The translations under genes were made by a program, and so were the position numbers. The notes beneath the pieces are model-generated. The model was given only the letters and a program-made list of their open reading frames with translations, was not told the DNA's origin and searched no databases. Of a DNA stretch of 64,000 nucleotides, positions 9,733 through 56,316 are shown one piece after another. The DNA is taken from NCBI GenBank assembly GCA_963669155.1, contig OZ022583.1, positions 3,951,609-4,015,608 on the forward strand. Direction: 5' to 3'. Position 1 is the stretch's first letter. Every line of letters begins with the position of its first letter. This DNA is from Arbacia lixula (Eukaryota; Echinodermata; Echinoidea; Arbacioida; Arbaciidae).

Positions 9733-9807
9733 CTCAGTCCCATAGGTGAGAAATCATGTTGTTATTGGCATGGAATTACCATTGGTTGGTCCTGAGAGGG
9801 TTATAGG
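9733..9807. repeat. Short 75-bp CTCAGT inverted-repeat element, copy 1
   Basis: Begins CCTCTCAGTCCCATAGG and ends TGGTCCTGAGAGGGTTA, so the ends are imperfect inverted repeats over about 12-14 bases. Related copies occur at 10228-10305, 45610-45692, 55264-55340, 56088-56165, 56241-56316 and as units of the arrays near 29 and 33 kb. Confidence 0.75.
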
Positions 9808-10227
9808 TAGTTCCCCTTTTGCAGACGATGTCAAGATTATGTTGCAATATTGCATGAACCACAAGTACAGCATATGAACATAATGACAAACACTACATGT
9901 ACTTTGTAGTTTGGCTGTCAGGTTCAGCTCCCTTTTGAAATTCAAAATGAACTTGGGGGTTGTCTCGTCAGCATTTTTATGAGCCATCAAATCCATACAG
10001 TGCACAGATTTGATGGTTTGTAAATACGATCTAGATGTAATCTTCTGGTTTTCTACATAATCCATCGTATCTGATGGAGTCGCTAAATAGGTTGTGGGGA
10101 TCAAAGCGTGGTTTTTTTTCAGTGTTATTTAGGGAACTTTTCAGTCATCAAACCCACACATCAAACACCAGTAAATGGTGAGCAAATAGTGACAATTTCA
10201 CATTAACAATGAGCTTCAATATCAGCT

Positions 10228-10305
10228 TTGACCTCTCATAGTACCAAGCCAGGAAAACCCCAATGACTAAGTACACATTTCATGCACCCATGGTACTCCG
10301 AGGAT
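10228..10305. repeat. Short CTCAGT element, copy 2
   Basis: Begins ACCTCTCATAGTACCAAGCC and ends CCCATGGTACTCCGAGGATT. The interior contains CAGGAAAACCCCAATGACT, which matches copies at 55264, 56088 and 56241. Lies at the position equal to copy 1 in the segmental duplication. Confidence 0.7.
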
Positions 10306-11884
10306 TATGGGTATACCTTTTGCAGACAAAATCAGATTATGTTGCATGAACCACAATCACATTGTACAGCATGAAAAAACAAGTCTTGTTAACCTCTTTG
10401 GCTCAGCTTACTTATATACTGCAAATTGAACTTCACGGATATCCATCCGTCTTCTTTTTTACATAATCCTTTTCTATGTGATGGAGTCGTTAAGATTGTA
10501 ATATTCAAAGTGACCTTCTCAGTGCACAGGTGTGTTGGTACCAGAATATATTTCCTAGACAAGGAGACAAAGGTCGATGTGAAATGAAAAGATCAATGTT
10601 ATACTGTATTCAAAGTCAGTTGTGAGGTCCTCTATTTTGAGTGAAGTCTTGTAACAGTATTTTCTTCAATACCGGTATGCTGTTTTATTGCTGTAGTGTT
10701 AAAATAACTTTATTTCTAATCTCTGCAAAATGTTATCCTTCCTTTTACCTGTGTCTCTCCCTCAAATTGTTCTTGCCATCCCACCTCACCACCTCACTAC
10801 TCTTGTACCCTTCTCTCTCTCTTTCCATATAAGAGAAAATTCACTTGTAGTCCAATGACACATATTCATGGATAGATTACCAATACAAATGATAAACAAC
10901 TTGCTGAACAATAAGTTATATTCTAAAGTTTGAAAAGAAATCTTAGACCTACATACATTGAGGATATTGTGATCCATCCTGTAAGTTATCAGAACAATTA
11001 TTACTATTTTAAATTTTGAAAAGAAATCTTACAACATATATAGACATTCAATGATGATATTGTGCTTCATCCTGTAAATTGATGAAAAACAAGTCAGATA
11101 CAAATCTTGGAACCAGAGAGAATTTGAGCCTGCAATCTACTACAATAAGATTTTAGTTGTCACCGATCCCTCTGCCCTATCCGTTTTAAAGATGCATGTG
11201 GGTGCTTGATGGCATCCCGGGGACTATACATGTACCGGTGTACGTCCTCTTAGCTCATTGTGCATTCAGTAGGATGCAGGGAGCCTCATTCAGCTGTGCC
11301 AGGACAAACCCCAGGCGCCATGGAAACAACATTAAGCGCGTTATCAACATGCATGTTAAGCAGATCTATACATTCAGTGGTCCATTTATCATGTTTCTAA
11401 ATACACATTAAGATATGCTGGTTGTAACTTTCAAAAATTTCTGAACTACCTATAGACAGAGGGTGCAGTTAAAGGGAGGCGTTCACATTGTGACTGATCT
11501 CTCCCCCAGTATTTCGCCAAAAATGTTCATATTTGCTCCTCTCAATTTACATAGTCTCATTAACATTTGGCGGGTACATTCACTGTTCAATTTGTTTTTA
11601 TTATCAAGATATACCCTTGTCGATATTTCACACCAATAATACTCTGTCCACACGAAGGGCTCTATAATCGGTTTGGCTCCCTCTAGTGGCCATAACTGGT
11701 AATGCCATCGAAAAAAAAAAACTCTACAAAAACTCTACCATAGTGTGCAGAGAATGGTCGGCATGTTCAGTTGATGTCTCATGCTCCCTCTACGATCACT
11801 GGTGGGGAGATCAGTGTCTACGATACAGGATTTCTTTCTCGCCCGGTGAAAGCACTGAAATTTATAATTCAGTGGGTGAAAGCG

Positions 11885-11922
11885 CGGGGGGCTGGCGGGG
11901 GGGGGGGGGGGGGGGGGTCTGG
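11885..11922 (+). repeat. Poly-G tract
   Basis: Nearly uninterrupted run of G with a few C/T breaks, capable of forming G-quadruplex. Its length may be unreliable for sequencing reasons. Confidence 0.85.
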
Positions 11923-12689
11923 GGGGATTCGTCTAACTTGATAGGGCGGGCCGCGATGCCCCATTGAATTTGGGAAATTCTCTTGTAGTGTTTCTTCTCC
12001 TTGCGTTGGCGGGGTAGCAAGTCGTAAGTGCTGGTAACCACACTTGCCGCACACAATGGTATCGTGTATTTTGTATTGACTGATGGTTACAAAACTTTCG
12101 AGCAGGCAAACATGATTCTATTCAACATTTCAAAGTAACTTACGTCATTGTTTGTGATGGTGTACAGTGCTCTTGTTCATAAATTAAACGTTGACTGGTA
12201 ATTGGTATTCCCTTCTTTAAATATAAAATCTCTTAAAGACTTTGATGAGTTGAGCTGAGAGAAGCAGGGTGGTGGAAGTTGGACGAATATTCTGTTACAT
12301 GTATCTTTATTCGCAACTCCAGAACCGTGTCACATATGCTGGGTATGCGTTTCATAACACGCCGTTTGAGACTTTGAGCTGCACATGTCTGGCGATAGTC
12401 TCAGGTTCTTAGACACATTTTATTAGCCCGAAACCGCGAAGCACAGAGTGTATGTCAGTTTCGTACCGCACTCGATCTGTACACGCATTCGGACTGATTC
12501 CACCGTACTGGCTTGTGCTTGTGATACAGAAATAACTCGAAACGCATACCACCGTTTTATTTTCCTAATTTTCTCAAGCATCAGAACATGGACCATATAC
12601 AGAGCAACCGCGCTATGTGACTTATAGTAAATAGACCTCCCGTTCTCCTCTTGGACATACAATACGCTCCGTTGCTTGTATTGGTAGCC

Positions 12690-12750
12690 GAGGCACTAGG
12701 CACAACGCAGTCTGTAATAACTGTCTGGTAACACAGACTATGCCCTAGAC
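12690..12750. repeat. Partial relative of the 15973-16185 palindromic element
   Basis: CGCAGTCTGTAATAACTG followed by TCTGGTAACACAGACTA and CCTAGACC parallels the left arm of the element at 15973 (GAGTCTGTTAACAACTATG, TCTGGTAATACAGAC). A decayed fragment. Confidence 0.5.
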
Positions 12751-13245
12751 CCATCCTCGTCCATGCTCTTCCGTACTGTGTCCATCATGCACCTTACAGC
12801 CTAATAGGCTACAGTGTACTCAGAGTGGCGTCTCTGGTGTACTGTAGTTCTAAGGCTACTTGTATGCAACACTGCTTGTATGTCACTTTCAGTACCGGAC
12901 TGCAGAATACTTTTACTTACCGGAGCAAACTGGCACAATTATGTCAATACTATGTTAATTATCGTATTCATGGACATGATGAATGTTTTGGATGACAGAT
13001 TCGTGCACGAATAAATGAAGTAAAGTTAGTTGATGATACATGTAATTGCTCAAAAAGCTATACGCTTCATACATGCTTGGTGTGCACGCATGGAACGTCA
13101 ATGCGAGCTTCACGTAGCTAAGCAGCATTGCTGCATGATCGAGGACAGGAGACACCTTTCCAACTCAAGCCGGTCAGCGTCGCAGCCGGCCACGGCCTAG
13201 TCTAGGTTCTAGACGTATTTTATCAGCGCTCATTGGTATACACAT

Positions 13246-13282
13246 GCGACGAAACCCAGCGCAACGATCTGGGTTTCGTCGC
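13246..13282. repeat. Perfect hairpin, 13-bp arms
   Basis: GCGACGAAACCCA at 13246-13258 is matched by TGGGTTTCGTCGC at 13270-13282 with an 11-base loop; weaker pairing extends outward through ATACACA/TGTGTAT. Probably the core of a decayed foldback element; a non-coding transcript hairpin cannot be excluded. Confidence 0.75.
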
Positions 13283-13653
13283 GCTGTGTATCGAATGCGG
13301 CCGGGCGACTCGGCTGTATACTCAGGAATGACACAGCCTGAATTTATAGATCCTATACATGTAGCTAACAAAAAGAAAACGGGGAAAGAGTACATATTAA
13401 TAACCTAGCAAAATGAGACCTTTTTTTTCGGACACCGGATTGGACAACAATCAAACTGGGTCCCGACAGCTTCAGCCTATCACCGCTTCACCACACGATC
13501 CGACTCAGGCGAAAAGTTACAATACCCTTCTAGATACATGTATCATTCGAACAATTGTGAGATGCATGTTTCTCTCAGTGGCCACTGTCTGAAATATAGA
13601 CTATATTAATGACCATTGCCCAACGGCCTACTGTCCATTCTCTCTCATGCCCT

Positions 13654-14439
13654 TTTTATAGTGCGCTCAGACTTACCCCGCTTCAGAAGCGGGATAACTT
13701 TAGCTCGGGGTAAGTCCTTTTATACTGCTTTTTTCGACCACCCATGACGGGAGCGAGACCGCACTAGTTGCCGTGGTAACGTACTGCCCCATCAGCCGTC
13801 CTTCCCGCCAGCGCGCCCCATCTCAACTGTGCTTACCGTGAGTGCAAAAATTGTATACGTGCACTCGCATGCGCAGGTGCTAGCGTATAGCTCCGTGTGT
13901 TCTCGTGTGAAGTTCATCGTGTACCGATCCTCGTGTTTCACTTTTGGTTTTTGTATTACTCGACTCGCGCGAAGTTGGAGCATGAATAGCTCCTCATCGC
14001 TCTCCCACTTCTTTCCTCTCGATGTTTTATCATCTTTCGACATGCTTTACGTGCGGATTTTCCTTCTTCTTTTTTTTGCTATCTCGGCTGAAAGAGAATA
14101 CAGTACACGGCACACACAGAGCTAACGTGAGGAGGCGCGAATGTTTACAGCTATAGCGTGCTTTGCGCTTGTACGTGGGTAACCCGGAAACGGAAGCGGC
14201 GTACATATACCGCACAGTCCGCACTTCCAGTTCATGGGTCACTGATTTTAGTCCGCGCTAAGTCGAGAGACCTTTTATAGTGACGTTAGCTCGGGTCTGA
14301 TCCGGACCTGATGCGGACCTGACCCTCCTCTCAGCTAGGACTAACTTTAGCTCGGGCTGAATATTTTTCGACCTTTTATAGTGAGAGTTACCCCGGATCA
14401 GGTCCGGACCTGATCCGGGGTAACTCTCACTATAAAAGG
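13654..14439. mobile_element. Inverted-repeat element(s) with CCTTTTATAGTG ends
   Basis: CCCTTTTTATAGTGCGC with CTTACCCCG near 13651-13690 faces CACTATAAAAGG at 14428-14439, whose reverse complement reads CCTTTTATAGTGAGAG and TTACCCCGG. Additional copies of the end lie at 13710-13722, 14270-14282 and 14372-14390. This could be one 0.79-kb element or two nested small ones. A minus-strand ORF inside (14043-13792) starts MSKDDKTSRGKKWESDEELF; W and DEE spacing loosely recalls a Myb/SANT-like domain, but that is weak and I do not call it a gene. Confidence 0.5.
14372..14439. repeat. 68-bp perfect palindrome
   Basis: The 34 bases from CCTTTTATAGTGAGAG to CAGGTCC are followed with no spacer by their exact reverse complement, GGACCTG to CTATAAAAGG. 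There is no mismatch. It ends directly next to a short CT microsatellite (14449-14464). Confidence 0.97.
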
Positions 14440-15111
14440 GGTATCACTCTCTCTCTCTCTCTCTTCTGCACCCGGCTTGACCTATCTGACCTGTACCGGC
14501 CAGCACTCAATGAACTAAAAATAACCCTCCACTGATTCACTTTCCCCGTTGTTTCATGTGACCATTCAGGGGGTGTGTGTATGTGTGTAATGGGGATGTA
14601 GTGTGTTATGTGTTTAGTACGTGTAGTCGTATCGTACAAAGTTACAGTCCAGGACGGTGGACTATGTCTGTCCATGGATCCTACTAGGGTCCACATGCTA
14701 TAATACATGTAATTCTATTCGATTAGGAAGAACCATGGACGTACGCTATGAAGAACGTGGTTTGCTTTTAGTTTGAAACTAGGTCACGTTCGTGAAAGAA
14801 CGAAGTCTGTAATTTGCGTGCCATATTTTGTTCACCAGGTTACTAATGTTTCAAAATAAAAATTTAAAAAAATTGTAAATGATTCTAATGCTCAGATGAG
14901 CCTCGCATGATGATGTTGGTAACTGCACTTATTTTAAATTTAGGACTTCGTTAGACTGAGTCTTGTTTTACAGACCAGCCTACGTCAGACAAACCGTTGT
15001 GGATGGCCCTATATTTTCGCTTGCCGTAGCGGCCATCCAGCAGTTCAGAACGCGGTATGGCTGCTATACATGTACATGTATTAGCTCTCCTTGTCCACTG
15101 ACCGTGCTAGG

Positions 15112-15126
15112 GAAAGAGAGAGAAAG

Positions 15127-15191
<65 letters not shown>
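15112..15191 (+). repeat. GA microsatellite
   Basis: (GA)n with a few AAG interruptions; one of the few purine-rich sense-strand tracts in the window. Confidence 0.95.
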
Positions 15192-15192
<1 letters not shown>

Positions 15193-15213
15193 CTATGCAT
15201 ACTATACTCTGCA

Positions 15214-15600: not shown

Positions 15601-15972
15601 CACAAGCATGATACATGTACATGTATTTATTTCAATATGTACGAAGAGAAAGTGGGTGAGAGAGAGAAATGAAAGAATGAAGACAGCAACAGAATAGAGC
15701 TAAGTTTAATATTTCACATTCAACCTTTTCTCGCTTATCTCTCTCTTTCTCTCTCACTCCTCTTTCTGTCAGCTGTACTTTCTCTCTATTTGTATCTGTC
15801 ATTTTTCCCCTCATTCCTTCTATCTTTCTCACCCTCATACCCCTTGGCGGTATGTTTATCCCTCATCCCACACGTTTTATTTCTTTCTCACTTTTTTTTT
15901 CCTTTTTCTTTATCACTCCCTTTCTCACTTCATTCAAAAATGTTCTCTATATCATAAGCATTTACCCTACTT

Positions 15973-16185
15973 ACTAGGCTGAGGAGCGCATTGTCACAAC
16001 CGAGTCTGTTAACAACTATGTCTGGTAATACAGACGAGGTCGTAATCCCTCTGACTGCCCTGGACCCTCTTCATAGCAGGGGGAGGAAGAGAGTCCAGGG
16101 CAGTCAGAGGGTTTGGGGCCTAGTCTGTATTACCATACATAGTTGTTAAAAGACTCGATTGTGACAATGCACTCCTCAGCCTAGT
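15973..16185. mobile_element. 213-bp palindromic MITE (ACTAGGCTGAGGAG ends)
   Basis: Left ACTAGGCTGAGGAG, CATTGTCACAA(C)CGAGTCT, TAACAACTATGT(C)TGGTAA and CAGTCAGAGG-type blocks recur in reverse order and complement up to CTCCTCAGCCTAGT at 16185. Arms of about 100 bp are more than 90 percent alike by eye, with a short centre (about 16070-16090). Confidence 0.9.
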
Positions 16186-16906
16186 AACTAGGCTACATAA
16201 GAATTTAAAGAAGCTTTGCTTCCCAACACACCGATTTTTGAATAAATATAATAAAAAGGCATACAGTACAAAAATGAGGGAGAAAGGAGAATGAACTGTA
16301 AATGTACAGAAGTCTAAATGTATTTTATACGATATATGTACATAACTAGATATATGCACTTCTAAAAATAGAAATGGATGAAGTGAACAACACTTACACT
16401 TGTCACACCAACAATACATGAGTTTGGAAGAGAAATTGGAAGAAAAAACTACAGGGTAGCCCTAATGCATGCAGATAAATTTCTTCCCAATGATAAATCT
16501 GGAAACTGACTCTGAGCAGAATTATTTTGATTGCCAGATTTGGAGGTTTTGTACGGGTCATTCGAAACCTACAGCCTATGAATACAATCACTGCATGTCA
16601 CACTGCACAGTGATACGTTGAGGCAAGCGGCACACAGCTGAACGAACACTGCAATATCAATGTAGCTCGTGGTTGCTACATTGCAAACAGGGATTTTCAC
16701 TTTTCCTGATGAGGTTTGAGAAGCTGCGACTGTGAGATGTCATACATGTTATTGCAAGGGTATACAGTTTCATGATGTCTGCAAATGGGCTACCCTGTCT
16801 TTAAGGTGTTGAAAATGATTCAAAATTTAAATAAAATCTGTTTTGTCCCATAATCACATTGTAAAAACATGCCGATTAAAATATTTGTGTGTTCATTTAT
16901 GGACCC

Positions 16907-17458
16907 CTACATGTATATGAGAGTCACGCTTAAGTCCTGCAGCTCTTTAACCATGCCCCTTCTGCTCATTCTCATGGTCCTGAGGGCTCCAATGTTTTTC
17001 TCCTTGAGAACATTGAAGACGACAGGCGCACTGTAGTCCATGATGACACGCGCACTGTAGTCCATGATGACACTCCTTCTCGTCCCATAGACAGGCTTGG
17101 ATAGTTCTTCCACTCTCTGGACGGTCATTGAGTTAGCCTTGATGATCTCTGCATTCCTTTCATGGCTTGTGTATGCTATCCACTTCAAACAGAAGTATTG
17201 TAATATGTCTGCTACTCCAAAGCACTAATTTCACCATTTCTTTGGCTTCAAATGGAGCTACTGTTTGAATCCTAGATGTCGTATGATGGTGAACAAGCTC
17301 TTGTTGATCAAGAGGATGCAGCCTGGAGAGTATGAAGCACGATATGCCTCATGATCGGATGGACCTTGAAAAGAGGGACGTATTCTGGTAGGCTGTTGGA
17401 AGCACACTGGTTGATGTCATTCAGGTGGAAAAAGGTGTCTTGAGACTGGTACATGTAC
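16907..17458 (-). pseudogene. Frameshifted minus-strand coding relic of unknown family
   Basis: On the minus strand a good acceptor (ATTCCTCTCAG) precedes 17458. It opens YMYQSQDTFFHLNDINQCAS, then SLPEYVPLFKVHPIMRHIVL, ending in a stop after HTLQ. Shifting frame near 17335 opens RLHPLDQQELVHHHTTSR and APFEAKEMVKLVLW; shifting again near 17220 opens KANSMTVQRVEELSKPVYGT and VFNVLKEKNIGALRTMRMSR, with an in-frame 8-codon repeat (VIMDYSAR / VIMDYSAP). Consecutive open, protein-like segments in three frames with a splice acceptor suggest a broken gene fragment. I do not recognise the family. Confidence 0.4.
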
Positions 17459-24717: not shown

Positions 24718-24799
24718 GTATGTACAGCTTCCCCACATGTGTGCTTCTAGCCTGCGCTCCAGGCTCTTTCATATTTCCCTTTAATTCAAATGATCGTAA

Positions 24800-27282: not shown

Positions 27283-27656
27283 TTAAAGGGCATATACTGT
27301 ACTGTGAAGGCAAAAAAGCCTTCAAAATATAATTGTTAGCAATCTTCTTGGCAATGGTCTTAGATTAACGTATTGTCCATTTTAGAAGCTTGCTGAAAGT
27401 TATTTGCCCTCAGATGATCCACATATGGAGAAATGAGTGATTAAATCACAAATCCTCCAAAATGTTCGGGCCAAACATTTTGAAGATTTAATCATTAATA
27501 ATTAATTACTCCATATGTGGATCATTTGAGGGCAAATAACTTTCAGCAAGCTTCTAAAATAGTCAATACATGAATTTAAGACCATTGCCAAGAAGATTGC
27601 TAACAATTACATTTTGAAGGCTTTTTTGCCTTCACAGTACAGTATATGCCCTTTAA
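27283..27656. mobile_element. Palindromic MITE with TTAA flanks, AGGGCATATACTG family, copy 1
   Basis: TTAA at 27283 and 27653 flank AGGGCATATACTGTACTG ... CAGTACAGTATATGCCCT. Arms of about 180 bp match with few differences through GCCTTCA, GCAATCTTCTTGGCAATGGT, GTCCATTTTAGAAGCTTGC and TTATTTGCCCTCA. TTAA target duplications point to piggyBac- or Kolobok-type transposases as mobilisers (inference). Confidence 0.92.
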
Positions 27657-28408: not shown

Positions 28409-29090
28409 TGGGTACAATTGCTGAGTTTTGCTGGGAATTGTTTGGCCAGCAGCTCGATCTTGCTATACTGTCCACTTACTGCAACCAAAGCACTTTATAC
28501 AATACATTCAAACAATTGAGAGAGGAAAAAGAAGAACAATGTTACAACTTTAAATTACTAAAGGGATGTTCTCAGAGTCTTTCTGAAGGCAAAAACCCAT
28601 TGCTCATGCATTGATCTAGACTTTTAGGTGTAGTGAACCCTGGTACAGGTAGGATGTCAAAAATTTACCTTGGAACTGCAGTAACCAAAGGGGTGTGCCA
28701 CAATTGCTGAATTTGAAATTTATTCATAGCCTGTAGTCTATTATCCATAGAGCAGATTATGCGGGAGTCGTGCTGCTCAGTATCTGAGTGGGAAAAAAGC
28801 CAGCCCGTAAGTAAGCAGGCTCAGCAAAGAACAAGTTAAGCAATGTAGACCATCTATTTGTAAGTGGTTAATCATTCAGGAGTGTTTTTGAAACGTGGAG
28901 GTCACACCAGGAACTGTCAACATCAAACTCAGAGGATAGACAAGAGGAAATATGGCATTTCCTCTCAACCTCTGCCCCTCCGCCACAGGTACACACTTCC
29001 AGTTAGCGTTCACTCTATACCAGAAACCAAAGACCATGCCTCATTGCATATTTTTAATCGTAGTTAACTACCCCAGTCCCGCTAAGGAAT

Positions 29091-29600
29091 GTGTTGTAAT
29101 TGAAATGGGACTATCAAAGATTGTTATTGATATGGTTAACGCTCTATGTTCCAATTAAAGTCAATACACTGTGCTGTAATTGGAATGGGACTATCAATGA
29201 TTGCTATTGATATGGTTAAGTCTCTATGTTCCAATGAAAGGCAGTATACACTGTGCTGTAATTGGAATGGGACTATCAATGATTGCTATTGATATGGTTA
29301 ACTCTCTATGTTCGAATTAAAGGCAATACACACTGTGCTGTAATTGAAATGGGACTATCGATGATTGCTATATTAAGAGTCTTAACTCTCTCGGCCCATA
29401 GGAAAAGTGTTGTAAATGACCTGCATGGGACTATCAAGGATTGGACTGAGGGGATTAACTCCCTCAGTCCATAGGCAATCTACTGCGTTGTGATTGACAT
29501 AAGACTCTCAATGGATGGTACCGAAAGTGTTAACCCTCTTAGTACTTTGTTGAAATGAACATGGGACTATCAACAATGATTTGTATCGAGAGGATTCACT
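29091..29600 (+). repeat. 80-bp tandem array related to the CTCAGT element
   Basis: Units start at 29091, 29171, 29253, 29335, 29407 and 29485. Each has GT(G/T)(C/T)TGTAATTG(G/A)AATGGGA, CTATCAATGATTGCTATTGA and a junction CTCTCAGTCC(C)ATAGG in the later ones. The first four are nearly identical, the later ones diverged and showing the CTCAGT-element ends. Confidence 0.9.
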
Positions 29601-30995
29601 CTCTCAGTCCCAAAGGCACCTGTATTTGTACATGTTGAGTTTATGTACGTGTTTGTACCTTCCTGATAATAATGGGTTATTAAGGTTTATAAATACTTCA
29701 TATTTGGTATGCGGGTCCCCACTTGAGTGTTGAACACCTTGATGGAGTAGGCAGGGAAAACTAGGTTAATGGACCACAAAAGGTGTAGTCTTGTTCCAAG
29801 CTGCCAGACATTTCTAATCTAAGCTTTACAGTGGGGTCTTGTACTCTTAAGACTAGTCACTACTCACGTCTCATCTTCTCCCAGTTTGACATTAATGTAC
29901 AGAAGAAGTAGAGAGAAATTAGTCTACTTAAGTCAGACATATTTATTATAGATTCAAAGTTAGGAATTTTTACAGTATGGAGATCAGGATACTAGTGGAG
30001 ATTAAAATCCCAATCTTGACAAGATCAACTGATGTAGATGGGAGTATTAGAGTATTGACATCAAGCTATTTAAAAGCCTTCTAGAGAAGAAAAACGGTAG
30101 CCATTTTTTTCCACACAGTTACCATGTATACCTGTAGTTGAAGCCATTTTTTTTTTTTTTTTTTTTGGAGGGGGGTCAATATAGTTTGTCTCACTATTGT
30201 GTTGATCAGATATGTATCCAAAGAATACAGCATTATTCATAGTGCTGATTTGGATGAATGATGATTGGATTGAAGAGCGAGGATGAGATCCTTATCGGAG
30301 CGAGTTTTCGGCTCTGCAGGGGTGTAAAAAATGTTAGACTTTGCACTTGATGCTGCCATTTTAACCCTTTGGGCAAAGGTCAAACATATGGCTTGCGCTT
30401 TTCAATATCACACTGCAGTATGCGTGGTAGAAGTAAAAGGGAAAAGTACTTCTTGTGGAAAAAAGATCAATATTTTCAGATATTCATAACCAATTGTAAT
30501 AATTACGGATTCTGACCTATATATAATCTGCTAGCATATGTCAGGGGGAAAAAATCAATGATTATTTGAGAGGTCTGCTTTTTAAGCCTGGTGTAGTGAA
30601 TATAGAAGTAAAGGGAGAAAAAAAAACCTGTCATGCATGAAGGATATTTATTTTCAGATATATAATGTAGAAATCAATCCCTATTAATGATAAATTATCC
30701 TGGTCTATTCTTGCGAGTTCATGCCAGGGGAAAAAGTAAATGATTATTTGTGAAGTATTGCTCTTCCTCCTGCTTACTCAAGCCTTGTGCTTTCTTTTTT
30801 TGGAGGTCTTCGTCATCTATGCTTTTTCTCAAGTGTTGTTGATGTTTTTACTTTGTTGAAAATAAAATTGAATTGAGTTGAATTTTCAACCCTGATGTCA
30901 GGACACAAACACAATGTGTTATAAAACCTAAGTGGATTTTCTTTCCGGGGCTCTCCAGTTATGCACGAGGGTTTTACTTTGCATTGCGGAAGCAT

Positions 30996-32915: not shown

Positions 32916-33156
32916 GCACTTGTAGCATGCATCATACATGTACCATGCATTATGTATGAGTGTTCGTTCTGCTATTCTGCTGCTTCCATCCAAGGTGTAA
33001 CAAGCAAGCAAGCAGGGAGTAGAAAGCCTGTGGGGAGGGAGGGCTGGGGAATAGCTGACATTTATCCTCACCTTAGGGTGTCCTCATATTAACAGGAAGT
33101 CTCTTCAGTTCCTTCCTATTTCTCATTGCAACTACCTTCAATCAGTTTCAAGTCTA

Positions 33157-34530
33157 AACCCTCTTAGTACCAACTTATCATAGTCCAGTGTCCATCTCTA
33201 CACAGTTTACTGCCTGTGGGACTGAGAGGTTTAAGTTACTTTACATTTCAGAGTGCAACTTCCTTCAAACCAGTTTAACCCTCTCAGTACTGATTACTTA
33301 TTATATAGTCCCTGTGTCCATCCCTACACAGTTTACCACCTATGGGACTGAACGAGCTAAGTTCCTTCACATTTCTGACTAAAACTTCCTTCAAACCAGT
33401 TTAACCCTCTCAGTACCGATTACTTATAGTCCCTGTCCCTACTACACAGTTTATTGGCTATGGGACTGAGAGGTTTAAGTTTCTTCACATTTCTGAGTGC
33501 TACTTCCTTCAAACCGGTTTAACCCTCTTAGTACTGATTACTTATCATAGTCCCGGGGGGGTCACTCTCCACATAGCCTGCTAGCACCCGCGTCCAGAAA
33601 AAGCGTCGAAAAGGGTCCCGTTTCAGGCACTCCGGCGTCGTCGACGTCTTTGGCAAAAAGGGTTGCATTTCAGCACCATTCGCTGGTAAATCGCCGTTTA
33701 GGGTAGCCTTTTCTCACTCTTCACGCCGTTTAGGGTTGCTAATTTGGTTATGAAGATTACGCCGTTAAAGTGGCTAAGAGAGGTGTCCTTGAGAGTAATC
33801 ATGTTGGCCTTACTTTCAATAACTTCAAAAAATGGAATTTATACCTGTTGTATTTAACATCAATTTAACATCAGTCATCAGTATGGTATCAAATTAATCG
33901 ATTTCAATGTTCACGCCATTTAGGGTATCAAATTAGGGGATTTCCCTGTTCACGCCACTTAGGGTGGCTTTTCTCATGGGTTACGCCCCCGTTACGCCAT
34001 TTAGGGTTGCAAATTTAGGTAATGTAGTTACGCCATTTAGGGTGCATTTCTGAGGTTGTCGGACACGGGTGGGTAGCAGGCCATGTGGAGAGTGACCCCC
34101 CCGGGATCATAGTCCCTGTGTCCATCCCTACATAGTTTACTGCCTATGGGACTGAAAAGGGTAAGTCCTTCACATTTCTGAGTGCAACTTCCTTCAAACC
34201 AGTTTAACCCTCTTAGTACCAATTACTTATCATAGTCCAGTGTCCGTCCCCACACAGTGTACTGCCTGTGGGACTGAGAGGTTTAAGTTACTTCACATTT
34301 CTGAGTGCAACTTCCTTCAAACCAGTTTAACCCTCTCAGTACCAATTACTTATCATAGTCCAGTGTCCGTCCCCATACAGTGTACTGCCTGTGGGACTGA
34401 TAGGGATAAGTTTGTTTCCATTTCTCATCAGAACCACCTTCAATCTGGGAAACCCTCTCAATACCAACCAATCATACCCCAGTGTCTATCCCTACACAGT
34501 TTATCACCTATGGGACCAAGAAGGTTCAGT
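33157..34530 (+). repeat. 121-bp tandem array, seven units, interrupted by a transposon
   Basis: Units start with AACCCTCT(C/T)AGTACC at 33157, 33277, 33403, 33521, 34206, 34329 and 34451. Each holds the CTCAGT-element core ending CTATGGGACTGAGAGG followed by a 45-bp spacer with CTTCACATTTCTGAGTGC and CTTCCTTCAAACCAGTTT. Spacing is 118-126 bp; removing the insertion and its target duplication (562 bp) restores 123 bp between units 4 and 5. Confidence 0.95.
33552..34105. mobile_element. 554-bp inverted-repeat transposon with perfect 8-bp target duplication
   Basis: ATCATAGT occurs at 33544-33551 and again at 34106-34113. The ends are CCCGGGGGGGTCACTCTCCA plus CATAGCCTGCTA and, in reverse complement, CCCGGGGGGGTCACTCTCCA plus CATGGCCTGCTA. 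The interior has six or more copies of a CGCC(G/A)TTTAGGGT word and no transposase. An 8-bp duplication is typical of hAT and P superfamilies; which one applies here is inference. Confidence 0.95.
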
Positions 34531-37915: not shown

Positions 37916-38088
37916 GACCCGTCATCTAATGAGAATGGGACCCTTGGTTACAGCAGAACGCCTCTGCTAGGTGTATGATCCAAAGTCTCTGTAATCTTGG
38001 CCGCTATTTTTCCTTTACTTGATGAAAGTAACCTACGTCCAGAATCCAGATGTTATGCAAGTAGATGACATTTGTCTCAGATGGCTCT

Positions 38089-38460
38089 TTGAAGGGAGTA
38101 TACTGTACTGGGAAGACAAAAAACCTTCAAGATGGTGATCGTGAGCCGTCTTCTTATCAATGGTCTTAAATTCATGTATTGTCCATTTTAGAAACTTGCT
38201 GAAAGTGATTTGCCCTCAAATTATCCACTTTTGGAATGATTAGTGATTAAATCACAAATCCTCAAAATGTTCAGCCCGAACATTTTAATCTAATTTAATT
38301 GAATCACTAATTACTCGAAATGTGGATAATTTGAAGTCAAATCACTTTCAGCAAGTTTCTAAAATGGACAATACATGAATTTCAGACCATTGGTAAGCAG
38401 ACGGCTCACGATCACCATCATGAGGGTTTTTGTCTTCCCAGTACAGTATACTCCCTTTAA
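38089..38460. mobile_element. AGGGCATATACTG-family palindromic MITE, copy 2
   Basis: TTGA at 38089 and TTAA at 38457 flank AGGGAGTATACTGTACTGGG and its inverted partner. Arms contain CTTGCTGAAAGTGATTTGCC and ATGTATTGTCCATTTTAGAA, as in the copy at 27283. Ends 140 bp upstream of exon 4. Confidence 0.9.
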
Positions 38461-38600
38461 CTGAAAATATTTATTTCAGTGCCTGTGTTTTAAAATTGTT
38501 TTTTTTTTCAATGTTTTGTTTGTATTTATAGCTCATGATGTAAACAGACAATTATTATTTCTCTCTCTTTCTCCATTTTACCCCCCTTTTTTTGTGACAG

Positions 38601-45609: not shown

Positions 45610-45692
45610 CAACTTTAGCCTGCTCAGTCCCACAGGCAATGAACTGTGTTGTAATTTATATTGGACTATGATTTCTTTGTACTGAGAGGGTT
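45610..45692. repeat. Short CTCAGT element, copy 3
   Basis: Starts GCTCAGTCCCACAGGCAATG and ends TTGTACTGAGAGGGTTAA, with GTGTTGTAATT in the middle as in the 29-kb array units. Confidence 0.75.
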
Positions 45693-45845
45693 AATGCTGG
45701 ATGTACATCTTCCAGTATTTCCAATCATGGCCCCATCCTATGAAGAGTTGTGATTGATCTAAATCGATCGCAACTCCAGTCCTATCGGTCGTAAGTCTTT
45801 ACAAAAACGGGCTGATTTAATAGGATATGGATCCCACTATAAGGC

Positions 45846-46355
45846 TTAAAGGGGAAGTTCACCCTGAAATTATTTTGGTTTCAATAAAAAGAGACAAATG
45901 AAAGAAACATATGAGTGAAGGTTTGACGAAAATCGGTCAAAGGAAAAGAAAGTTATTTGATTTTAAAGTTTTGATTTTGTGACGTCACGTGCGAGGTGCT
46001 CTCCCATACATGTATGTTGTGTACAAAATAAGTCGATAAATTGCTTTTTTTCTGTTTTTGACAACGGAATGATTTTTTTTCGTACAGGTATGTGTGTAAA
46101 AACGTATTTCTGATAATGTATCAAACGCACAAGTAAAAGGATGCATATATTTGTGAGAAAATGCACATTTTCGAAAAAAATTGTACACAACATATGGGAG
46201 AGCACCTCGCATGTGAAGTCACAAAATAAATACTTTAGAATCAAATAACTTTCTTTTACTTTGACCGATTTTCTTCAAACCTTCACTCATATGTTTTTTT
46301 CATTTGTCTCTTTTTATTGAAACCAAAATAATTTCAGGGTGAACTTCCCCTTTAA
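45846..46355. mobile_element. AGTTCACCCTG-family palindromic MITE, copy 3 (TTAA flanks)
   Basis: TTAA at 45846 and 46352 flank AGGGGAAGTTCACCCTGAAA and TTTCAGGGTGAACTTCCCCT. Arms are about 240 bp and highly complementary (GGTTTGACGAAAATCGGTCA / TGACCGATTTTCTTCAAACC). The best preserved copy here, so probably the youngest. Confidence 0.95.
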
Positions 46356-49024: not shown

Positions 49025-49178
49025 GGCATTGGTCTTCTGAAAACTGATGTTGGTCATTTTCAAAATAACACCTCAGGCCCCTTGAGGATGTATCTATACT
49101 ACTTGAGATGTTACACGTACCTTCTTGAAATCGCATGTCTAACCGATACATTCTGATGTCTTTGTTTTGTTCTTGTAG

Positions 49179-50270: not shown

Positions 50271-50301
<31 letters not shown>

Positions 50302-50703: not shown

Positions 50704-52979
50704 GTGAGTGGGCCTGTAGATCCATCCAAAGTTAAACCCTATCAGTCTCTTGGGAGGATAACGTGTGTAGTACCTTAGTGTGATTCTTATGACTTGGTAC
50801 CCAGATGGTTAAAGATCCCATTGAAAGAAACTTTAGCAGGGTTGCCGCCTTGGCTAACCTACGGCAGTTTTTGTTTAATGAGCATCAATAGCAGAAGAGC
50901 TAAGTTGCATTATCTGGTAGTGAGTTAAGTCTCACGTTTGAACCAGGAGGGCTACATAGTGAGTAATGCATCATTTATAGGATATTCAAAAACAAAATCC
51001 ATGGTAGCAGCCCCTAATTTGCATATTGATTTCATTTCATTTTGTGTCATAGCTTGCATGAGTTATTTTGTGTGTTTATTCAGTGTACATTTATGCATTG
51101 AGATGCACAATTGGAACATTAGCATAGGGGCCTTTTATGAAAAAAAATGTAAAGCGTCAAACCCATGGAATCGCCCTATATAGTTAAGTATGTACTCGTC
51201 GGAGAAGAGAGAGCAATATTTCATTTTATGATCATTGAAGTAACAGGAAGTACAGCATTCTTTAAGAGGTGGTGGGCTTTGTTGGCATAGCAACAGTTGT
51301 GTGATGGGAGATAATAGTACTGGGTACAGCCATCCTGATTTACATATATAGTGGGTTTAGGAGACTCTCTTTATGAAAATACGTTAAGTACTTCTGACCA
51401 GGCTGAGACACTTTCTTGTCTTAGAGATCTGATGAAGTCTTATTTTCAATTTCTCAGATTTGCCTCATAATCCCTAGTCAACATGCTCAATATTTCTGCA
51501 CAGTGCCAGTGGCGATTTCTCACCAAAGCTAACTATGTAATCCCCTCATTACCATAGGTGCATGACACGTGTAATAAGTCAGTAGGCTTCGCCTGGCTTG
51601 GTAGTGAGAGGGATAAACTTTTCCGATGACACTTTAGGACTAATAGTAATCAATGGTTACAATTACTGTTTATGATGGAGATTTAGAGCCGATAGTAATC
51701 AAGAGGTACAATTGAGCTGAGATTTGCCCCTGATCCATAGACTTGTAATTCCTCCAGAGATCTGCATTGCGGTCTGTAACAATATCCATGGTAGCAGCCC
51801 CTAATTTGCATATTGCTTTTCATTTCATTTTGTGCATAGCTTGCATGAGTTATTTTATGTGTTTATTCAGTATACATTTATGCATTGAGATACATAATTG
51901 GAACATTAGCACAGGGGCCTTATATAAAAAAAAAATGTAAAGCGTCAAACCCATGGAATTGCCCTATACAGTTAAGTACTACTCGTCGGAGAAGAGAGAG
52001 CAATATTTCATTTTATGATCACTGAAGTAACAGGAAGTATAGCATTCTTTAAGAGGTGGTTGGCTTTGTTGGCATAGCAACAGTAGTGTGATGAGAGATA
52101 ACAGTACTGGGTAAAGCCATTCTGATTTACATATATAGTGGGTTTAGGAGACTCTCTTTATGAGAGTTCTCATGGACATGTACATGATGTACTTCTGACC
52201 AGGCTTAGACACGTTCTTGTCTTAGAGATCTGATGAAGTCTTATTTTCAATTTCTCAGATTTGCCTTATAATCCCAAGTCAACATGCTCCAATATTTCTG
52301 CACAGTGCCAGTGGTGATTTCTCACTAAAGCTAACTAATCCCCTCATTACCATAGGTGCATAACATGTGTAATAAGTCAATAGGCTTCTCCTGGCTTGGT
52401 AGTGAGAGGGATAAACTTTTCAGACGACACTTTAGGAGTAATAGTAATCAATGGTTACAAATACTGTTTATGATGGAGATTTAGAGCCGATAGTAATCAA
52501 GAGATCTGCCCCTGATCCATAGACTTGTAACTCCTGTAGAGATCTGCATTGCGGTCTGTAACAATATCCCTGATTGTTGTTTTCATCTCCACAAATGTGC
52601 AGTGTAGATTGACAGTATTAAAGTTGAAAATTAGTCACATTTTGGGGTCTGGAAATCTTTTTCTCTAAACCTTTGGCTAGATGGCAGAATAGTTCCCGTT
52701 TTTGTGGGGCATCTCCATGAGCTCACAATCTATTTGTCATACGCAATAGAATGCAGCAGATGTATGTGCTTCATGTGGGCATGGGACTTGGGTGCCTAAT
52801 TAGCTTGTGAAGGACTTATGTCAGTCTAACAAAGAAATAATTTCAACTTTGGGCTCATTCCCTACATTAGAAAAGACCGTGCTATTTTGAAAACTCTCGG
52901 CTGGTGCCAATCCACCTAATGTGTTATCTGTTGGCTAATCGTTCATGCCTATCGTTCCTCTTCCTCTTCTCCTCCTCAG
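50704..52979. other. SPPL3: SPPL3 intron F, 2.3 kb, mostly a tandem duplication
   Basis: The whole centre of this intron is the duplicated segment listed next; the ends hold no further signal. Confidence 0.85.
50999..52569 (+). repeat. 0.79-kb tandem duplication
   Basis: 50999-51785 and 51786-52569 are direct copies, from CCATGGTAGCAGCCCCTAAT to GGTCTGTAACAATATC. Differences are scattered single bases and small indels (for example GTACAATTGAGCTGAGATTT near 51700 is missing from copy 2; TCATGGACATGTACATG near 52170 is only in copy 2). No coding sequence is included. Confidence 0.97.
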
Positions 52980-53068
52980 GTGGGCATCATGGCCAAGAAA
53001 TTCAATCTGCCTGGAGTTGCTCGAGATGCTCCACAGCTCTCTCTCCCAGGAAAACTAATATTCCCAAG
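52980..53068 (+). CDS. SPPL3: SPPL3 exon 7: cytosolic loop between the two catalytic helices
   Basis: After a long pyrimidine tract ending CCTCAG the exon encodes VGIMAKKFNLPGVARDAPQ and then LSLPGKLIFP, residues 221-249; donor GTAACT. LSLPGKLIFPS aligns with the vertebrate LSLPGKLVFPS, while the first half is divergent, as is usual for this loop (vertebrates read [20 protein letters not shown]). A 0.5-kb CT array starts about 75 bp downstream of the donor. Confidence 0.95.
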
Positions 53069-53142
53069 GTAACTAGGCAACGAGGAGACAAAATCACATT
53101 TTGCCAATTCCATCCCCTCCCTCTGCCTGTCTGTCTGTCAGG

Positions 53143-53162
53143 TACTCAGTCTCTCTCTCTCT

Positions 53163-53194
<32 letters not shown>

Positions 53195-53705
53195 GTTTCT
53201 TTTCCCCTCTATGTTGATCACTATCTTTGTATGGCTGTTACTCTCTCTCTTTCTCTCTCACTCTCTCTCTTTTTCTCTCTCACTCTCTCTTTCTCTCTCA
53301 CTCTCTCTTTCTCTCTCTCTCTCTCTTTCTCTCTCTCCCCATTTCTCCCTCTCTCTCTCTCTCCCCATTTCTCCCTCTCTCTCTTTCTCCCTCTAACCCT
53401 CTTTAAATCTATCTATATCTCTCTTCCCCTCTATATGTCTCTATATGTCTGTCTCTGTCTTTCTCTGTGTCATCCCCTCCCCCTTTCTTTCTCTCCATAC
53501 CTCTCTCGCTGTCTCTTCTACACTCTCTTCCTTTTACCCTCTATCTGCCTCTTCCACTTCTTCCCTTTCTCTTTCTGTGTCTCTGTCCCTCTTTCTCATT
53601 CTCTACCTCTCCTCAGTAAATCAGTATATCTCTCTCTGTTCCTCTCCCTCCGTCTCTCTTTTCCTCTCTTTGTCTAGTTGTCCCTCTCTCTCTGTCTCTC
53701 TCCAT
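53143..53705 (+). repeat. CT-rich microsatellite tract
   Basis: About 560 bp of CT, CTTT and CTCC blocks on the sense strand, the longest in the window. Confidence 0.95.
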
Positions 53706-54070
53706 GTAATAAGTGGAAAAAGTAGAGCAAGTCCCTGCTTTGAATGTAAGGGAAGACCCCGAAAGCCTATATGACCCATGTGGGCTATGGGCAACTTAGT
53801 TTTCACTTTGCACTTTGAGGGAAGGTGACTGGAATAAGCAGCCTGTTTGCAAGGATGTTATTTGCCATTTTATTTTTGCCAGTCATCAATAGATGGCTTC
53901 TCAGGTGTATCTTATCTGTTGTTTATTAGACTGTCACATGGCTCCTTTGGAAAGCAGTCCTCAAGACTGAAAGGACTACCCTGTCTAAATAAAACATCAA
54001 ATAAAAATAAAGATTGTAGGTCAAGGGATGGTGCTCTGGAAATCTACCAATTGGATTATAAGTACTTTTT

Positions 54071-54162
54071 CTGAAATTGTAGATGAACAAATCATTTTTG
54101 ATTACCTTTGACCTTTATTTCCCAGCATGCACCCCTCAAATCACTTCTTGAAGCTTGGTCTT
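54071..54162 (+). pseudogene. Pseudo-exon: diverged copy of the exon 8 acceptor and 5' end
   Basis: CTGAAATTGTAG..., ACCTTTGACCTTTATTTCCC and AGCATGCACCCCTCAAATCA, then CTTCTTGAAGCTTGGTCTT, parallel 54264-54347 (ACCTTTGACCTTTCCTACCC, AGCATGCACAACTCAGGTCA, CTTCTCCATGCTTGGTCTT). Read in the exon 8 frame it gives MHPSNHFLKLGLISHQ: the GLGD aspartate is lost (GLIS). No donor follows, so it cannot replace exon 8. Confidence 0.88.
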
Positions 54163-54307
54163 ATTTCTCATCAGTCAAAACAGCAATTCTCCTCATCAAA
54201 ATATCTTTTGTTGTTTAAATTTATTTAATTTCATTTTTGCAACCACCCTTTCTAAATGAAGTCTGAAATCATAAATACATTTGTAACCTTTGACCTTTCC
54301 TACCCAG

Positions 54308-54507
54308 CATGCACAACTCAGGTCACTTCTCCATGCTTGGTCTTGGGGACATTGTGATGCCGGGCTTGCTGCTGTGCTTCGTGATGCGCTACGACAACTA
54401 CAAGCGGCAGCAGTCTGACACCGTGGCCCCTACCCCCATTATGCCCCCCAACGGATTCACGCAGAAGCTCACTTACTTCCACTGCTCCCTCATTGGATAT
54501 TTTGTGG
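54308..54507 (+). CDS. SPPL3: SPPL3 exon 8: second catalytic aspartate (GLGD)
   Basis: The acceptor TTTCCTACCCAG precedes [19 protein letters not shown], then [16 protein letters not shown], a variable proline-rich loop, and [13 protein letters not shown] (residues 251-316); donor GTAAGT. GLGD is at residues 261-264 and the catalytic GAC at 54348-54350. This is the second half of the aspartyl protease active site. The first 40 bases, with acceptor, have a diverged copy about 185 bp upstream inside the intron. Confidence 0.98.
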
Positions 54508-55110
54508 GTAAGTCACAACAGTTGGATTCCAGGCTGATATAATCTTTGTCTTGCGGTTATAGTTACGGAACCTGAATAACCAACCATTTTCTTTTTTAAG
54601 TTTTTGTCATCACATTGTATTACTTATTCTGTTAATGGTTGTTTAGAATGGGAACAGTCAACCATTTCGTGCCACGCAATGCAAATATAAGGACAGAAGA
54701 TTCCTTTTGAAAACTGTTACTAAATAATTGTTACTCACAATTGCATAACCTCAAGTTGAAAATTACACATAACCCAAGATCATCTTTTCCCACTGTTACA
54801 TAGCACTGATCCAATATAGCTTTCATAATTAGTGTATGAAAAAAGATGAATGACCCATATACCCAATTCGAACAAATAGTTCATTTCTTCTGGTACTTAT
54901 ATGTTTATTTGTGGAACTTGCTTGTGTCTCAGTTTCAAAGACGCAAGTTTAAAATGCCTATCAGTCAAGGAATGTAATAACAGATATTCATTTTTTAAAA
55001 TTCCAAACGGCACTAGCTAGTACCCTGTAGAAGCTTAGGTAATTAGAAGTGTGCAGCCTGTATAAAAGAACAGCCCAGTGCTAATCATATGTGTGTTTGC
55101 TGCCCTCTAG
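54508..55110. other. SPPL3: SPPL3 intron H, 0.6 kb
   Basis: AT-rich; nothing beyond the splice sites is recognised. Confidence 0.8.
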
Positions 55111-55220
55111 GTCTGTTAACAGCGACGATATCATCGGAGGTGTATAAGAACGCGCAGCCAGCCCTGCTGTACCTGGTTCCCTTCACGTTGCTACCTCTGC
55201 TCCTCATGGCGTACCTCAAG
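55111..55220 (+). CDS. SPPL3: SPPL3 exon 9: PAL motif
   Basis: The acceptor is GCCCTCTAG and the donor GTAAGA. The exon encodes [20 protein letters not shown] and then [17 protein letters not shown], residues 317-353. [16 protein letters not shown] contains the conserved PAL triad (55158-55166) needed for presenilin/SPP-type active sites and forms the last transmembrane helix. The sequence is nearly the same as in other animal SPPL3 proteins. Confidence 0.98.
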
Positions 55221-55263
55221 GTAAGAACAAAACTCCAGCTTCTGCTTCAGGGCAGTATAAGTT

Positions 55264-55340
55264 TAACTCTCTCAGTACCAAGCTAGGAAACGCCCATTGA
55301 CTTATTGCACATGTCATGTGCCTATGGTATTGAAAAGGTT
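55264..55340. repeat. Short CTCAGT element, copy 4
   Basis: AACTCTCTCAGTACCAAGC, GGAAACGCCCATTGACTTAT, TGCACATGTCATGTGCC and TATGGTATTGAAAAGGTTAA. Its right end runs directly into the minisatellite. Confidence 0.85.
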
Positions 55341-55775
55341 AAAACTGACAAGGTTTAAACTGGCAAGGTTTAAACTGACAAGGTTAAAACTGACAAGGTT
55401 AATCTGACAAGGTTAAAACTGAAAAGGTTAAAACTGAAAAGGTTAAGACTGACAAGGTTAAAACTGACAAGGTTAAAACTGACAATGTTAAAACTGATAA
55501 GGTTTAAACTGACAAGGTTAAAACTGAAAAGGTTAAAACTGACAAGGTTAAAACTGACAAGGTTTAAACTGACAAGGTTAAAACTGACAAGGTTAAAACT
55601 GACAAGGTTAAAACTGACAAGGCTTAAACTGACAAGGTTTGAACTGACAAGGTTTAAACTGACAAGGTTAAAACTGACAAGGTTGAAACTGACAAGGTTT
55701 AAACTGACAAGGTTTAAACTGACAAGGTTTAAACTGACAAGGTTAAAACTGATAAGGTTGAAACTGAAAAGGTGA
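55335..55775 (+). repeat. 15-bp minisatellite, about 29 copies
   Basis: Units AAGGTTAAAACTGAC and AAGGTTTAAACTGAC. Because 15 is a multiple of 3 it leaves five-residue repeats open in several frames (KLTRF-type on +, LVSFN-type on -); these are not genes. Confidence 0.98.
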
Positions 55776-56087
55776 ACCCTCTTATTACCAAGGTGTGAAT
55801 AGACCATTGAATAAGCCACTTCGTAATTGCAATTGCGCGTGAGCAGATTATTGCTTTTAGTAGTGATCTCAGATCAATTTCCAAACTCACAGAGTAAAAA
55901 TGGGAATTTATGTGATAGTCGACCACATTTCAATCTATTATCATGCAAATATGGCAACAGCTATTCAGCTCTGAGAAGGTAGTGAAAGAACATAGCACCA
56001 TGTGCATCTGCCTCTATTGTTGTTCCGGGCACACTGTAAAATGTAAAATGCTCTCCCTGCTCTCCCATAGGCAATAGTGTTTTATTT

Positions 56088-56165
56088 AACTTGCTCAGTA
56101 CCAAGTCGGGAAAAAAAACGCATCGACTTATTCCAAATTTCATGCGCCTTTAGTACTGAGAAGGT
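56088..56165. repeat. Short CTCAGT element, copy 5
   Basis: CTTGCTCAGTACCAAGTCGG, ATCGACTTATTCCAAATTTC, TGCGCCTTTAGTACTGAGAA and GGTT. Confidence 0.85.
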
Positions 56166-56240
56166 TCATTCTTTGTGTGTCAATGACTTGTTTTTGCACA
56201 AATGCACGAAATACACACAAATCCCAAAGGGATGTAATTT

Positions 56241-56316
56241 TGTTAACTCTCTTAGTAAAAGCCAGGAAAAGCCCATTGACTTGCTGCACATTTCATGAAC
56301 CTATGGTACTTAGAAG
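56241..56316. repeat. Short CTCAGT element, copy 6
   Basis: AACTCTCTTAGTAAAAGCCA, GGAAAAGCCCATTGACTTGC, CACATTTCATGAACC and TATGGTACTTAGAAG. Confidence 0.85.

What the first reader, a model, noticed from the sequence alone, without database searches (positions are those of the whole stretch)
9733..56316. A roughly 75-bp inverted-repeat element (CTCAGT family), both dispersed and amplified into arrays
At least six single copies (9733, 10228, 45610, 55264, 56088, 56241) share AACC(C)TCTCAGTACC at one end and GGTACTGAGAGGGTT at the other, and the same core forms the units of the arrays at 29091 and 33157. This is very short for a MITE. Two internal subtypes are visible: one with GGAAAAGCCCATTGACTTAT (55-56 kb, 10.2 kb) and one with a GTGTTGTAATTG centre (29 and 45.6 kb). 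Ability to exist both alone and as satellite units is unusual.
Basis: partly seen in the sequence, partly recalled or inferred. Interest (0 to 1): 0.75.

Follow-up and report, generated by a model that had tools for sequence, protein, structure and literature searches.

The report
Tiny TTAA transposon forming tandem arrays
An 80-base, non-coding element with TTAA at both ends, probably a jumping element, is scattered in thousands of copies through an animal-like genome and in some places has multiplied head-to-tail into small satellite arrays; it is a very short member of an already known kind of element.

Summary
The unit is a discrete 80-bp element, TTAA-CCCTCTCAGT[A/C]CC...GGTACTGAGAGGG-TTAA (72-bp core plus TTAA at each end). 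The exact 17-base end occurs 1037 times in the window's 607-Mb genome, its reversed control 0 times. Random DNA gave 5 copies in 200 kb, roughly 5,000-35,000 per genome. Homology stops at the TTAA: flanks of 30 single copies are 25-27% alike, the terminal 20 bp 73-75%, so it is not a fragment of a longer repeat. The two internal subtypes are subfamilies of one element.

Arrays are head-to-tail: 66 of 66 adjacent near-full-length pairs in 17 groups. Of these, 37 share one exact TTAA (76-bp period); outside four loci fetched by a TTAA pattern it is 15 of 43. Best explanation: a piggyBac-type (TTAA) MITE whose arrays arise by local tandem duplication. No autonomous partner and no convincing empty site was found. 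Coral CMITEs (PMC2872659) are a close precedent: TTAA, CC[C/T]T ends, about 100 bp, tandem arrays. Hence a new, shorter member of a known kind.

The parts
9725..9804 (+). single copy, AGTCCC subtype (B)
   Evidence: 50.3 bits; ends GTAA/TTAT
10229..10308 (-). single copy, AGTACC subtype (A)
   Evidence: 54.5 bits; ends ATAA/GTCA
29064..29624 (+). array: about 82-bp period first, then TTAA-sharing units of about 73-76 bp
33155..33565 (-). array, period about 120-126 bp (element plus about 40-bp spacer), first half
34108..34528 (-). second half of the same array, beyond an inserted inverted-repeat element (33554-34105)
45615..45694 (+). single copy, subtype B
   Evidence: 51.6 bits; ends TTAG/TTAA
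   Evidence: 44.2 bits
51537..51616 (+). single copy, subtype A, inside a tandem duplication of about 790 bp
   Evidence: 62.9 bits; duplication
52335..52414 (+). single copy, the duplicate of the one at 51537
   Evidence: 68.5 bits
55263..55342 (-). copy, subtype A, TTAA at both ends
   Evidence: 69.8 bits
55331..55773 (+). 15-bp minisatellite TGACAAGGTTAAAAC that continues the right end of the 55263 copy; its exact two-unit form occurs in the genome only here
55775..55814 (-). partial copy that closes the 15-bp array
   Evidence: 13.5 bits
56086..56168 (-). copy, near-full length
   Evidence: 46.4 bits
56243..56321 (-). copy, subtype A
   Evidence: 50.9 bits

Best explanation
An 80-bp, non-autonomous DNA transposon (MITE) that inserts at TTAA and was most likely moved in trans by a piggyBac-type transposase recognising the terminal CCCTCTCAGT repeats. 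Shown here: a discrete unit, TTAA at both ends, thousands of dispersed copies, imperfect inverted ends, piggyBac transposase genes with long open frames in the same genome, uniform orientation in every array read. Inferred: that TTAA is a target-site duplication, and that piggyBac is the mover. Arrays are inferred to start as local tandem duplications. Slippage or unequal exchange between the two flanking TTAA copies would duplicate exactly 'element + one TTAA' (76 bp); duplications that take in some flank give 82-, 87- or 123-bp units. Later unequal exchange would expand and homogenise them.
For: Ends: 10 perfect TTAA..TTAA copies against 0 for the reversed pattern; 1037 exact end motifs against 0 (ends, not elements). 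Boundaries: flank identity 25-27% against 73-75% in the terminal 20 bp of 30 singles; in 22 singles not chosen by TTAA, each TTAA base is the majority at both ends and conservation falls away outside. In 8 isolated sites chosen by one exact end, the other end is exactly TTAA in 4 of 8, where about 0.8% is expected from base composition. Terminal CCCT fits the piggyBac hallmark CC[C/T]T plus TTAA (PMC2872659). piggyBac domain PF13843: at least 120 matches in the genome, more than 20 of them in stop-free frames of 500-800 aa. Arrays: 66 of 66 adjacent near-full-length pairs in the same orientation. In the 11 groups of three or more units, interiors are on average 70-89% alike within a group against 53-69% to single copies elsewhere. 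The 17-mer clusters on C1/C2 are each in one orientation, 4 of 4.
Against: No autonomous element with these ends was found: none of the 20 PF13843 hits on the listed stretch of C1/C2 lies within 22 kb of an exact end motif, and 1-kb 3' flanks of ten piggyBac ORFs show no such end. Among 47 joined-flank queries against the held sequence, 6 alignments span the junction: 5 are to other array units and 1 is a weak 33-bp match beside a degenerate copy, so no convincing empty site. Because TTAA is palindromic, TA and TTAA duplications would leave the same empty site. Shared-TTAA junctions: 22 of the 37 come from four loci fetched by a TTAA..TTAA pattern (19 of them one array, L006); without these loci 15 exact and 3 mutated of 43 junctions, in 5 of 13 groups. 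The best match of an array unit in another held locus is often about as good as the within-array mean (L034, L035, L036, L037), and three pairs show little or no excess (L040, L044, window 29.4 kb). One partial neighbour lies in the opposite orientation (L050).
Confidence: 0.78

Rival explanations
1. Self-targeted insertion: arrays arise because new copies insert into the TTAA that flanks an existing copy.
For: Shared-TTAA junctions are the largest single class (37 of 66 in all, 15 of 43 outside pattern-chosen loci). The copy in L050 abuts a TTAA-bordered repeat seen without it in L021. Two copies of different subtype and orientation lie between matching segments of a local duplication at 9.7 and 10.2 kb, although another repeat also lies there in the first.
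Against: A palindromic target gives random orientation, but 66 of 66 near-full-length adjacent pairs agree; counting each group once 17 of 17 (16 of 16 if the split window array counts once), or 9 of 9 for groups with a TTAA-sharing junction. Units in most groups are more alike than single copies elsewhere. It could still found dimers that then expand.
Confidence: 0.15
2. Satellite first: a tandem repeat whose single monomers were spread, for example through circular DNA, without a transposase.
For: Unit and array period match (76 bp = 72 + TTAA); neighbouring hits occur on several contigs.
Against: 79 of 83 loci with the exact end are isolated at the resolution of that motif, although 1 of 8 inspected 'isolated' sites has a clear TTAA-sharing neighbour (L067) and 1 a possible partial one (L064). 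Single copies end at TTAA on both sides and carry inverted ends, which chance break points would not give.
Confidence: 0.07
3. A MITE of another TTAA-using or TA-using superfamily (Kolobok, Tc1/mariner).
For: Kolobok also uses TTAA (PMC6004289); the outermost T and A are somewhat less conserved than the inner bases (15 and 16 of 22 against 17-19).
Against: Kolobok ends are RR or AGGRR, while these begin CCCT, the piggyBac hallmark. All four TTAA columns stand above background at both ends.
Confidence: 0.12
4. A structured non-coding RNA or a hairpin kept by selection.
For: The consensus folds well as a single DNA strand (z -4.0); three single copies give z -0.4, -2.5 and -1.4.
Against: The two arms show no co-variation across 44 copies: paired fraction 0.753 at positions 5-17 against 0.750 after shuffling partners between copies, reached by 339 of 1000 shuffles; interior fold no better than shuffles; no Rfam match at the gathering threshold.
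Confidence: 0.02
5. A fragment of a longer repeat.
For: A few copies share a neighbour: the CCTTTTGCAGAC sequence beside 9725, 10229 and L050.
Against: Flanks of 30 singles are at background similarity; a similar neighbour sequence also occurs with no element hit nearby (L021, window 40439).
Confidence: 0.01

Closest known systems
CMITE, piggyBac/TTAA MITEs of Acropora corals (PMC2872659; abstract, outline and passages seen)
   Same: TTAA at the ends, CCC[T] terminal motif, very small (about 100 bp), homogeneous size, several subfamilies, tandem arrays of full-size elements attributed by the authors to slippage; family III end CCCCTCAGTGTCCG resembles CCCTCTCAGTACC.
   Different: Here 80 bp in all and more diverged copies (44 copies: mean pairwise identity 0.68; CMITE families 84-97%), junctions sharing one TTAA, deletion-bearing units of 65-67 bp and a 56-bp spacing, and a 15-bp minisatellite grown from one end. 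Whether coral arrays share TTAA was not seen. CMITE's conserved interior was not compared (no CMITE sequence at hand).
T2-MITE / Xmix-Xstir of Xenopus (PMC6004289, passages seen)
   Same: TTAA-targeting MITE connected with a tandem repeat family.
   Different: Kolobok-type AGGRR ends; there an internal segment, not the whole element, was amplified.
Other MITE-derived satellites named in PMC9659126 (passages seen): miDNA4, pearl elements, Messor ants
   Same: A MITE as the source of tandem repeats.
   Different: Other superfamilies where one is given; in miDNA4 the satellite motif is internal to the element.

Membership tests
piggyBac/TTAA MITE | TTAA flanking both ends | tested here: met
   in 22 singles not selected by TTAA each TTAA base is the majority at both ends
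piggyBac/TTAA MITE | TTAA shown to be a target-site duplication by an empty site | tested here: inconclusive
piggyBac/TTAA MITE | terminal inverted repeats of 12-19 bp with CC[C/T]T terminal motif | tested here: met
   CCCTCTCAGT...; arms complementary in the majority of 44 copies to position 18 (TTAA counted) except position 15, 10 of 44; hallmark from PMC2872659
piggyBac/TTAA MITE | short, non-coding, high copy number | tested here: met
   80 bp; 1037 exact end motifs; about 25 copies/Mb in 200 kb of random DNA
piggyBac/TTAA MITE | autonomous partner with the same ends | tested here: inconclusive
   at least 120 PF13843 matches exist; 20 on the listed part of C1/C2 have no exact motif within 22 kb; ten 3' flanks negative; the rest untested
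Kolobok MITE | RR/AGGRR terminal motif | tested here: not met
   ends are CCCT.../...AGGG; definition from PMC6004289
coral CMITE | shared conserved 75-bp internal region | not testable with these tools
   no CMITE sequence at hand

The most novel reading that the evidence does not exclude
The element's own TTAA duplications are what seeds satellite birth: a single TTAA-flanked insertion duplicates precisely into TTAA-sharing 76-bp arrays (by slippage on the TTAA microhomology or through transposase-made circles), so one transposon family repeatedly spawns new satellites, including nested ones such as the 15-bp TTAA-bearing minisatellite at 55.3 kb.
Probability: 0.3. Interest if true: 0.5.

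Novelty: new member of a known kind. Interest (0 to 1): 0.35.

Why it matters
In one genome it shows lone copies, pairs and arrays of up to 20 units of the same small element, with a countable junction type, so the question how transposons turn into satellites can be tested by junction statistics. It also adds a shorter, more diverged case to the array-forming TTAA MITEs described in corals, and is of use for repeat annotation of this genome.

Tried and rejected
Rejected: longer-repeat fragment; structured RNA; self-insertion in random orientation as the general array mechanism. Led nowhere: 3' ends of ten piggyBac ORFs (the only end-like matches, 5 mismatches, lie inside two ORFs); empty sites within held sequence (whose outputs were cut, repeated compactly); a text search for the 9-mer CTCAGTACC, 186 papers of which 10 were listed, none on repeats of this kind (listing only); the double-ended pattern in viral contigs and in the prokaryote genome contigs, 0 and 0. 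Literature searches for a described animal version: (listings only, apart from the three papers named). I considered an echinoderm or amphioxus as the host from contig number and size, by recall only; no call tested it and no species is claimed.

Miscounts corrected: the '5 random hits of 15 bits or more' printed counts one place on both strands; distinct copies are 4 at 15 bits or more and 5 at 12 or more, and the density uses the latter. Dropped rows: L001 (the window itself) was left out of the scans; L046 and window 52335 were dropped as duplicates; L003-L012 were left out of the TTAA column count because a TTAA pattern found them, but 6 of them are among the 30 singles. The second-round profile was built from first-round matches that include the same held DNA; the seed-only round gave a similar table (random 5 at 12 bits or more, strands not merged).
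Full report
WHAT IS THERE. The window lies on contig C8 of an unnamed 607-Mb genome. It holds exon-like stretches of a signal-peptide-peptidase gene (PF04258) at about 24.6, 50.5, 54.3 and 55.1 kb, which makes it animal-like (inference). A profile seeded with 18 copies (10 perfect genome copies and 8 window copies) and rebuilt from its own matches finds 25 distinct copies or pieces of at least 10 bits in the window (counted by hand from the table). The reversed window plus reversed random DNA gave none of 8 bits or more. Of the 25, 23 lie between or after the exon-like stretches named above.

ANATOMY. The consensus of 44 copies (28 singles, 16 array representatives) is exactly 80 nt: TTAA, CCCTCTCAGTCCCATAGG, interior, TTGGTACTGAGAGGG, TTAA. 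The arms are complementary in the majority of copies out to position 18 (TTAA counted), apart from position 15 (10 of 44). Subtypes A (AGTACC, 9 copies) and B (AGTCCC, 31 copies) both have an 80-nt consensus, and their interiors align in the same direction with score 13. None of 2000 shuffles reached that (maximum 10), and the reverse orientation scored -7. Comparisons of individual copies show this only weakly: A-B interior identity 0.61 against 0.56 for shuffles. Four of the 44 copies could not be assigned.

IT IS A DISCRETE ELEMENT. In 30 single copies (24 of them not found through a TTAA pattern), positional identity of the first 20 flanking bases is 0.27 and 0.26, against 0.73 and 0.75 for the first and last 20 bases of the element. 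In 22 singles not selected by TTAA, after removing two duplicates, the TTAA columns are conserved at both ends (15, 18, 17, 17 of 22 left; 19, 18, 18, 16 of 22 right). The signal fades within a base or two outside, leaving a mild T before and A after (13 and 14 of 22). The first eight isolated exact-end sites listed on C1 all carry a copy; the end not used for selection is exactly TTAA in 4 of 8.

COPY NUMBER. The exact 17-base end occurs 505 + 532 = 1037 times, its reversed control 0; these are ends, and one element can hold two. Twenty random 10-kb stretches on C1-C10 (200 kb) hold 5 distinct copies at 12 bits or more (4 at 15 or more), none within 150 bp of another: about 25 per Mb, 95% range 8-58 per Mb, or about 5,000-35,000 in the genome. 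In the 100 places listed (all of C1 and C2 to 27.8 Mb) there are 83 loci, 79 isolated and 4 clusters. 'Isolated' is judged by the exact motif only: of the eight inspected, one has a clear TTAA-sharing neighbour (L067) and one a possible partial one (L064).

ARRAYS. Seventeen groups of near-full-length copies less than 150 bp apart were read (six of them mere pairs): eight loci fetched for neighbouring hits (L033-L040), L044, four found by the TTAA..TTAA pattern (L006, L009, L011, L012), and four groups in the window, two of which are halves of one array. All 66 adjacent pairs have the same orientation. Junctions: 37 share one exact TTAA, 3 share a mutated 4-bp overlap, 26 have spacers or other gaps. 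Without the four pattern-chosen loci the tally is 15, 3 and 25 of 43, in 5 of 13 groups. So TTAA-sharing is still the largest single class there (the next is the 2-base gap of the 82-bp type, 12 junctions), but not the majority. Periods are 76 bp (L033, L034, L035, L037 and others), 65-67 bp in a 20-unit array with an internal deletion (L006), 82 and 87 bp with constant short spacers (L036, L038, L039), and 120-126 bp in the window; a 56-bp spacing is seen in a cluster on C1 (positions only). In the 11 groups of three or more units, interiors are on average 70-89% alike within a group against 53-69% to single copies elsewhere; three of the six pairs (L040, L044, window 29.4 kb) show little or no excess. 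The best match in any other held locus averages 73-88%, so for several arrays it is about as good as the within-array mean. One partial copy lies next to a full copy in the opposite orientation (L050).

A NESTED ARRAY. At 55331-55773, about 30 copies of a 15-bp unit TGACAAGGTTAAAAC continue the right end of the copy at 55263 and run into the left end of a partial copy at 55775. The unit is the element's last bases plus TTAA plus three bases. Its exact two-unit form occurs only here in the genome: 3 matches, all inside this array. This looks like a minisatellite born at the junction of two copies; that is inference.

MECHANISM. TTAA at both ends, CCCT termini, small size and high copy number match the stated hallmarks of piggyBac-type MITEs (PMC2872659), and the genome holds at least 120 PF13843 matches, more than 20 in stop-free frames of 500-800 aa. 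Not shown: a partner with the same ends (none within 22 kb for the 20 hits on the listed C1/C2 stretch; none in ten 3' flanks) and an empty site (47 joined-flank queries in held sequence; 6 spanning alignments, 5 to array units and one weak 33-bp match beside a degenerate copy). The arms mutate independently, as expected of decaying copies rather than a selected hairpin. For the arrays, uniform orientation favours tandem duplication over repeated insertion, and within-array similarity agrees for most groups. The frequency of shared-TTAA junctions suggests that the flanking TTAA copies can serve as the microhomology, but slippage, unequal exchange and circle-based amplification cannot be told apart here, and no chance expectation for the junction type was computed. 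Insertion beside existing TTAA borders may also happen: the copy at L050 abuts another TTAA-bordered repeat seen without it in L021. Copies of different subtype and orientation lie between matching segments of a local duplication at 9.7 and 10.2 kb, though a further repeat lies between segment and element in the first.

AGAINST WHAT IS KNOWN. Coral CMITEs (PMC2872659; abstract, outline and passages seen) are the nearest match: about 100 bp, TTAA, CC[C/T]T ends, several subfamilies, tandem arrays of full-size elements that the authors ascribe to slippage. Family III's end, CCCCTCAGTGTCCG, is similar to the end here, which is a lead, not a membership test. Kolobok MITEs share TTAA but not the ends (PMC6004289, passages seen). 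I therefore file it as a new, unusually short member of the piggyBac/TTAA MITEs, with the partner unproven. Interest is moderate.

Noticed in passing
33554-34105: An inverted-repeat insertion (CGGGGGGGTCACTCTCC... ends) splits the 123-bp array; the flanks repeat ATCATAGTCC (10 bp), which looks like its target duplication.
   Followed up: partly
16916-17344 (-): Weak piggyBac (PF13843) match with several equally scoring copies elsewhere in the genome; a Pfam scan of the open stretch 16910-17224 did not show it.
   Followed up: partly
50991-52572: Tandem duplication with about 790-bp unit, each unit carrying one CTCAGT element.
   Followed up: partly
window 9805, 10309, 40430; L050, L021: Another repeat with CCTTTTGCAGAC near its end, bordered in L050, L021 and at 40.4 kb by TTAAAGGTAG; the AGG end recalls Kolobok MITEs (resemblance only).
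   Followed up: partly
27283-27656, 38071-38461, 45846-46355: Inverted pairs belonging to two abundant repeat families with many copies in random DNA.
   Followed up: no
15960-16198: Long hairpin: 113-nt arms, 88% complementary, 13 nt apart.
   Followed up: no
9608-9721: Repeat with copies at 58.2, 61.0 and 62.5 kb and in L015, L021 that stops a few bases before the element at 9725.
   Followed up: no
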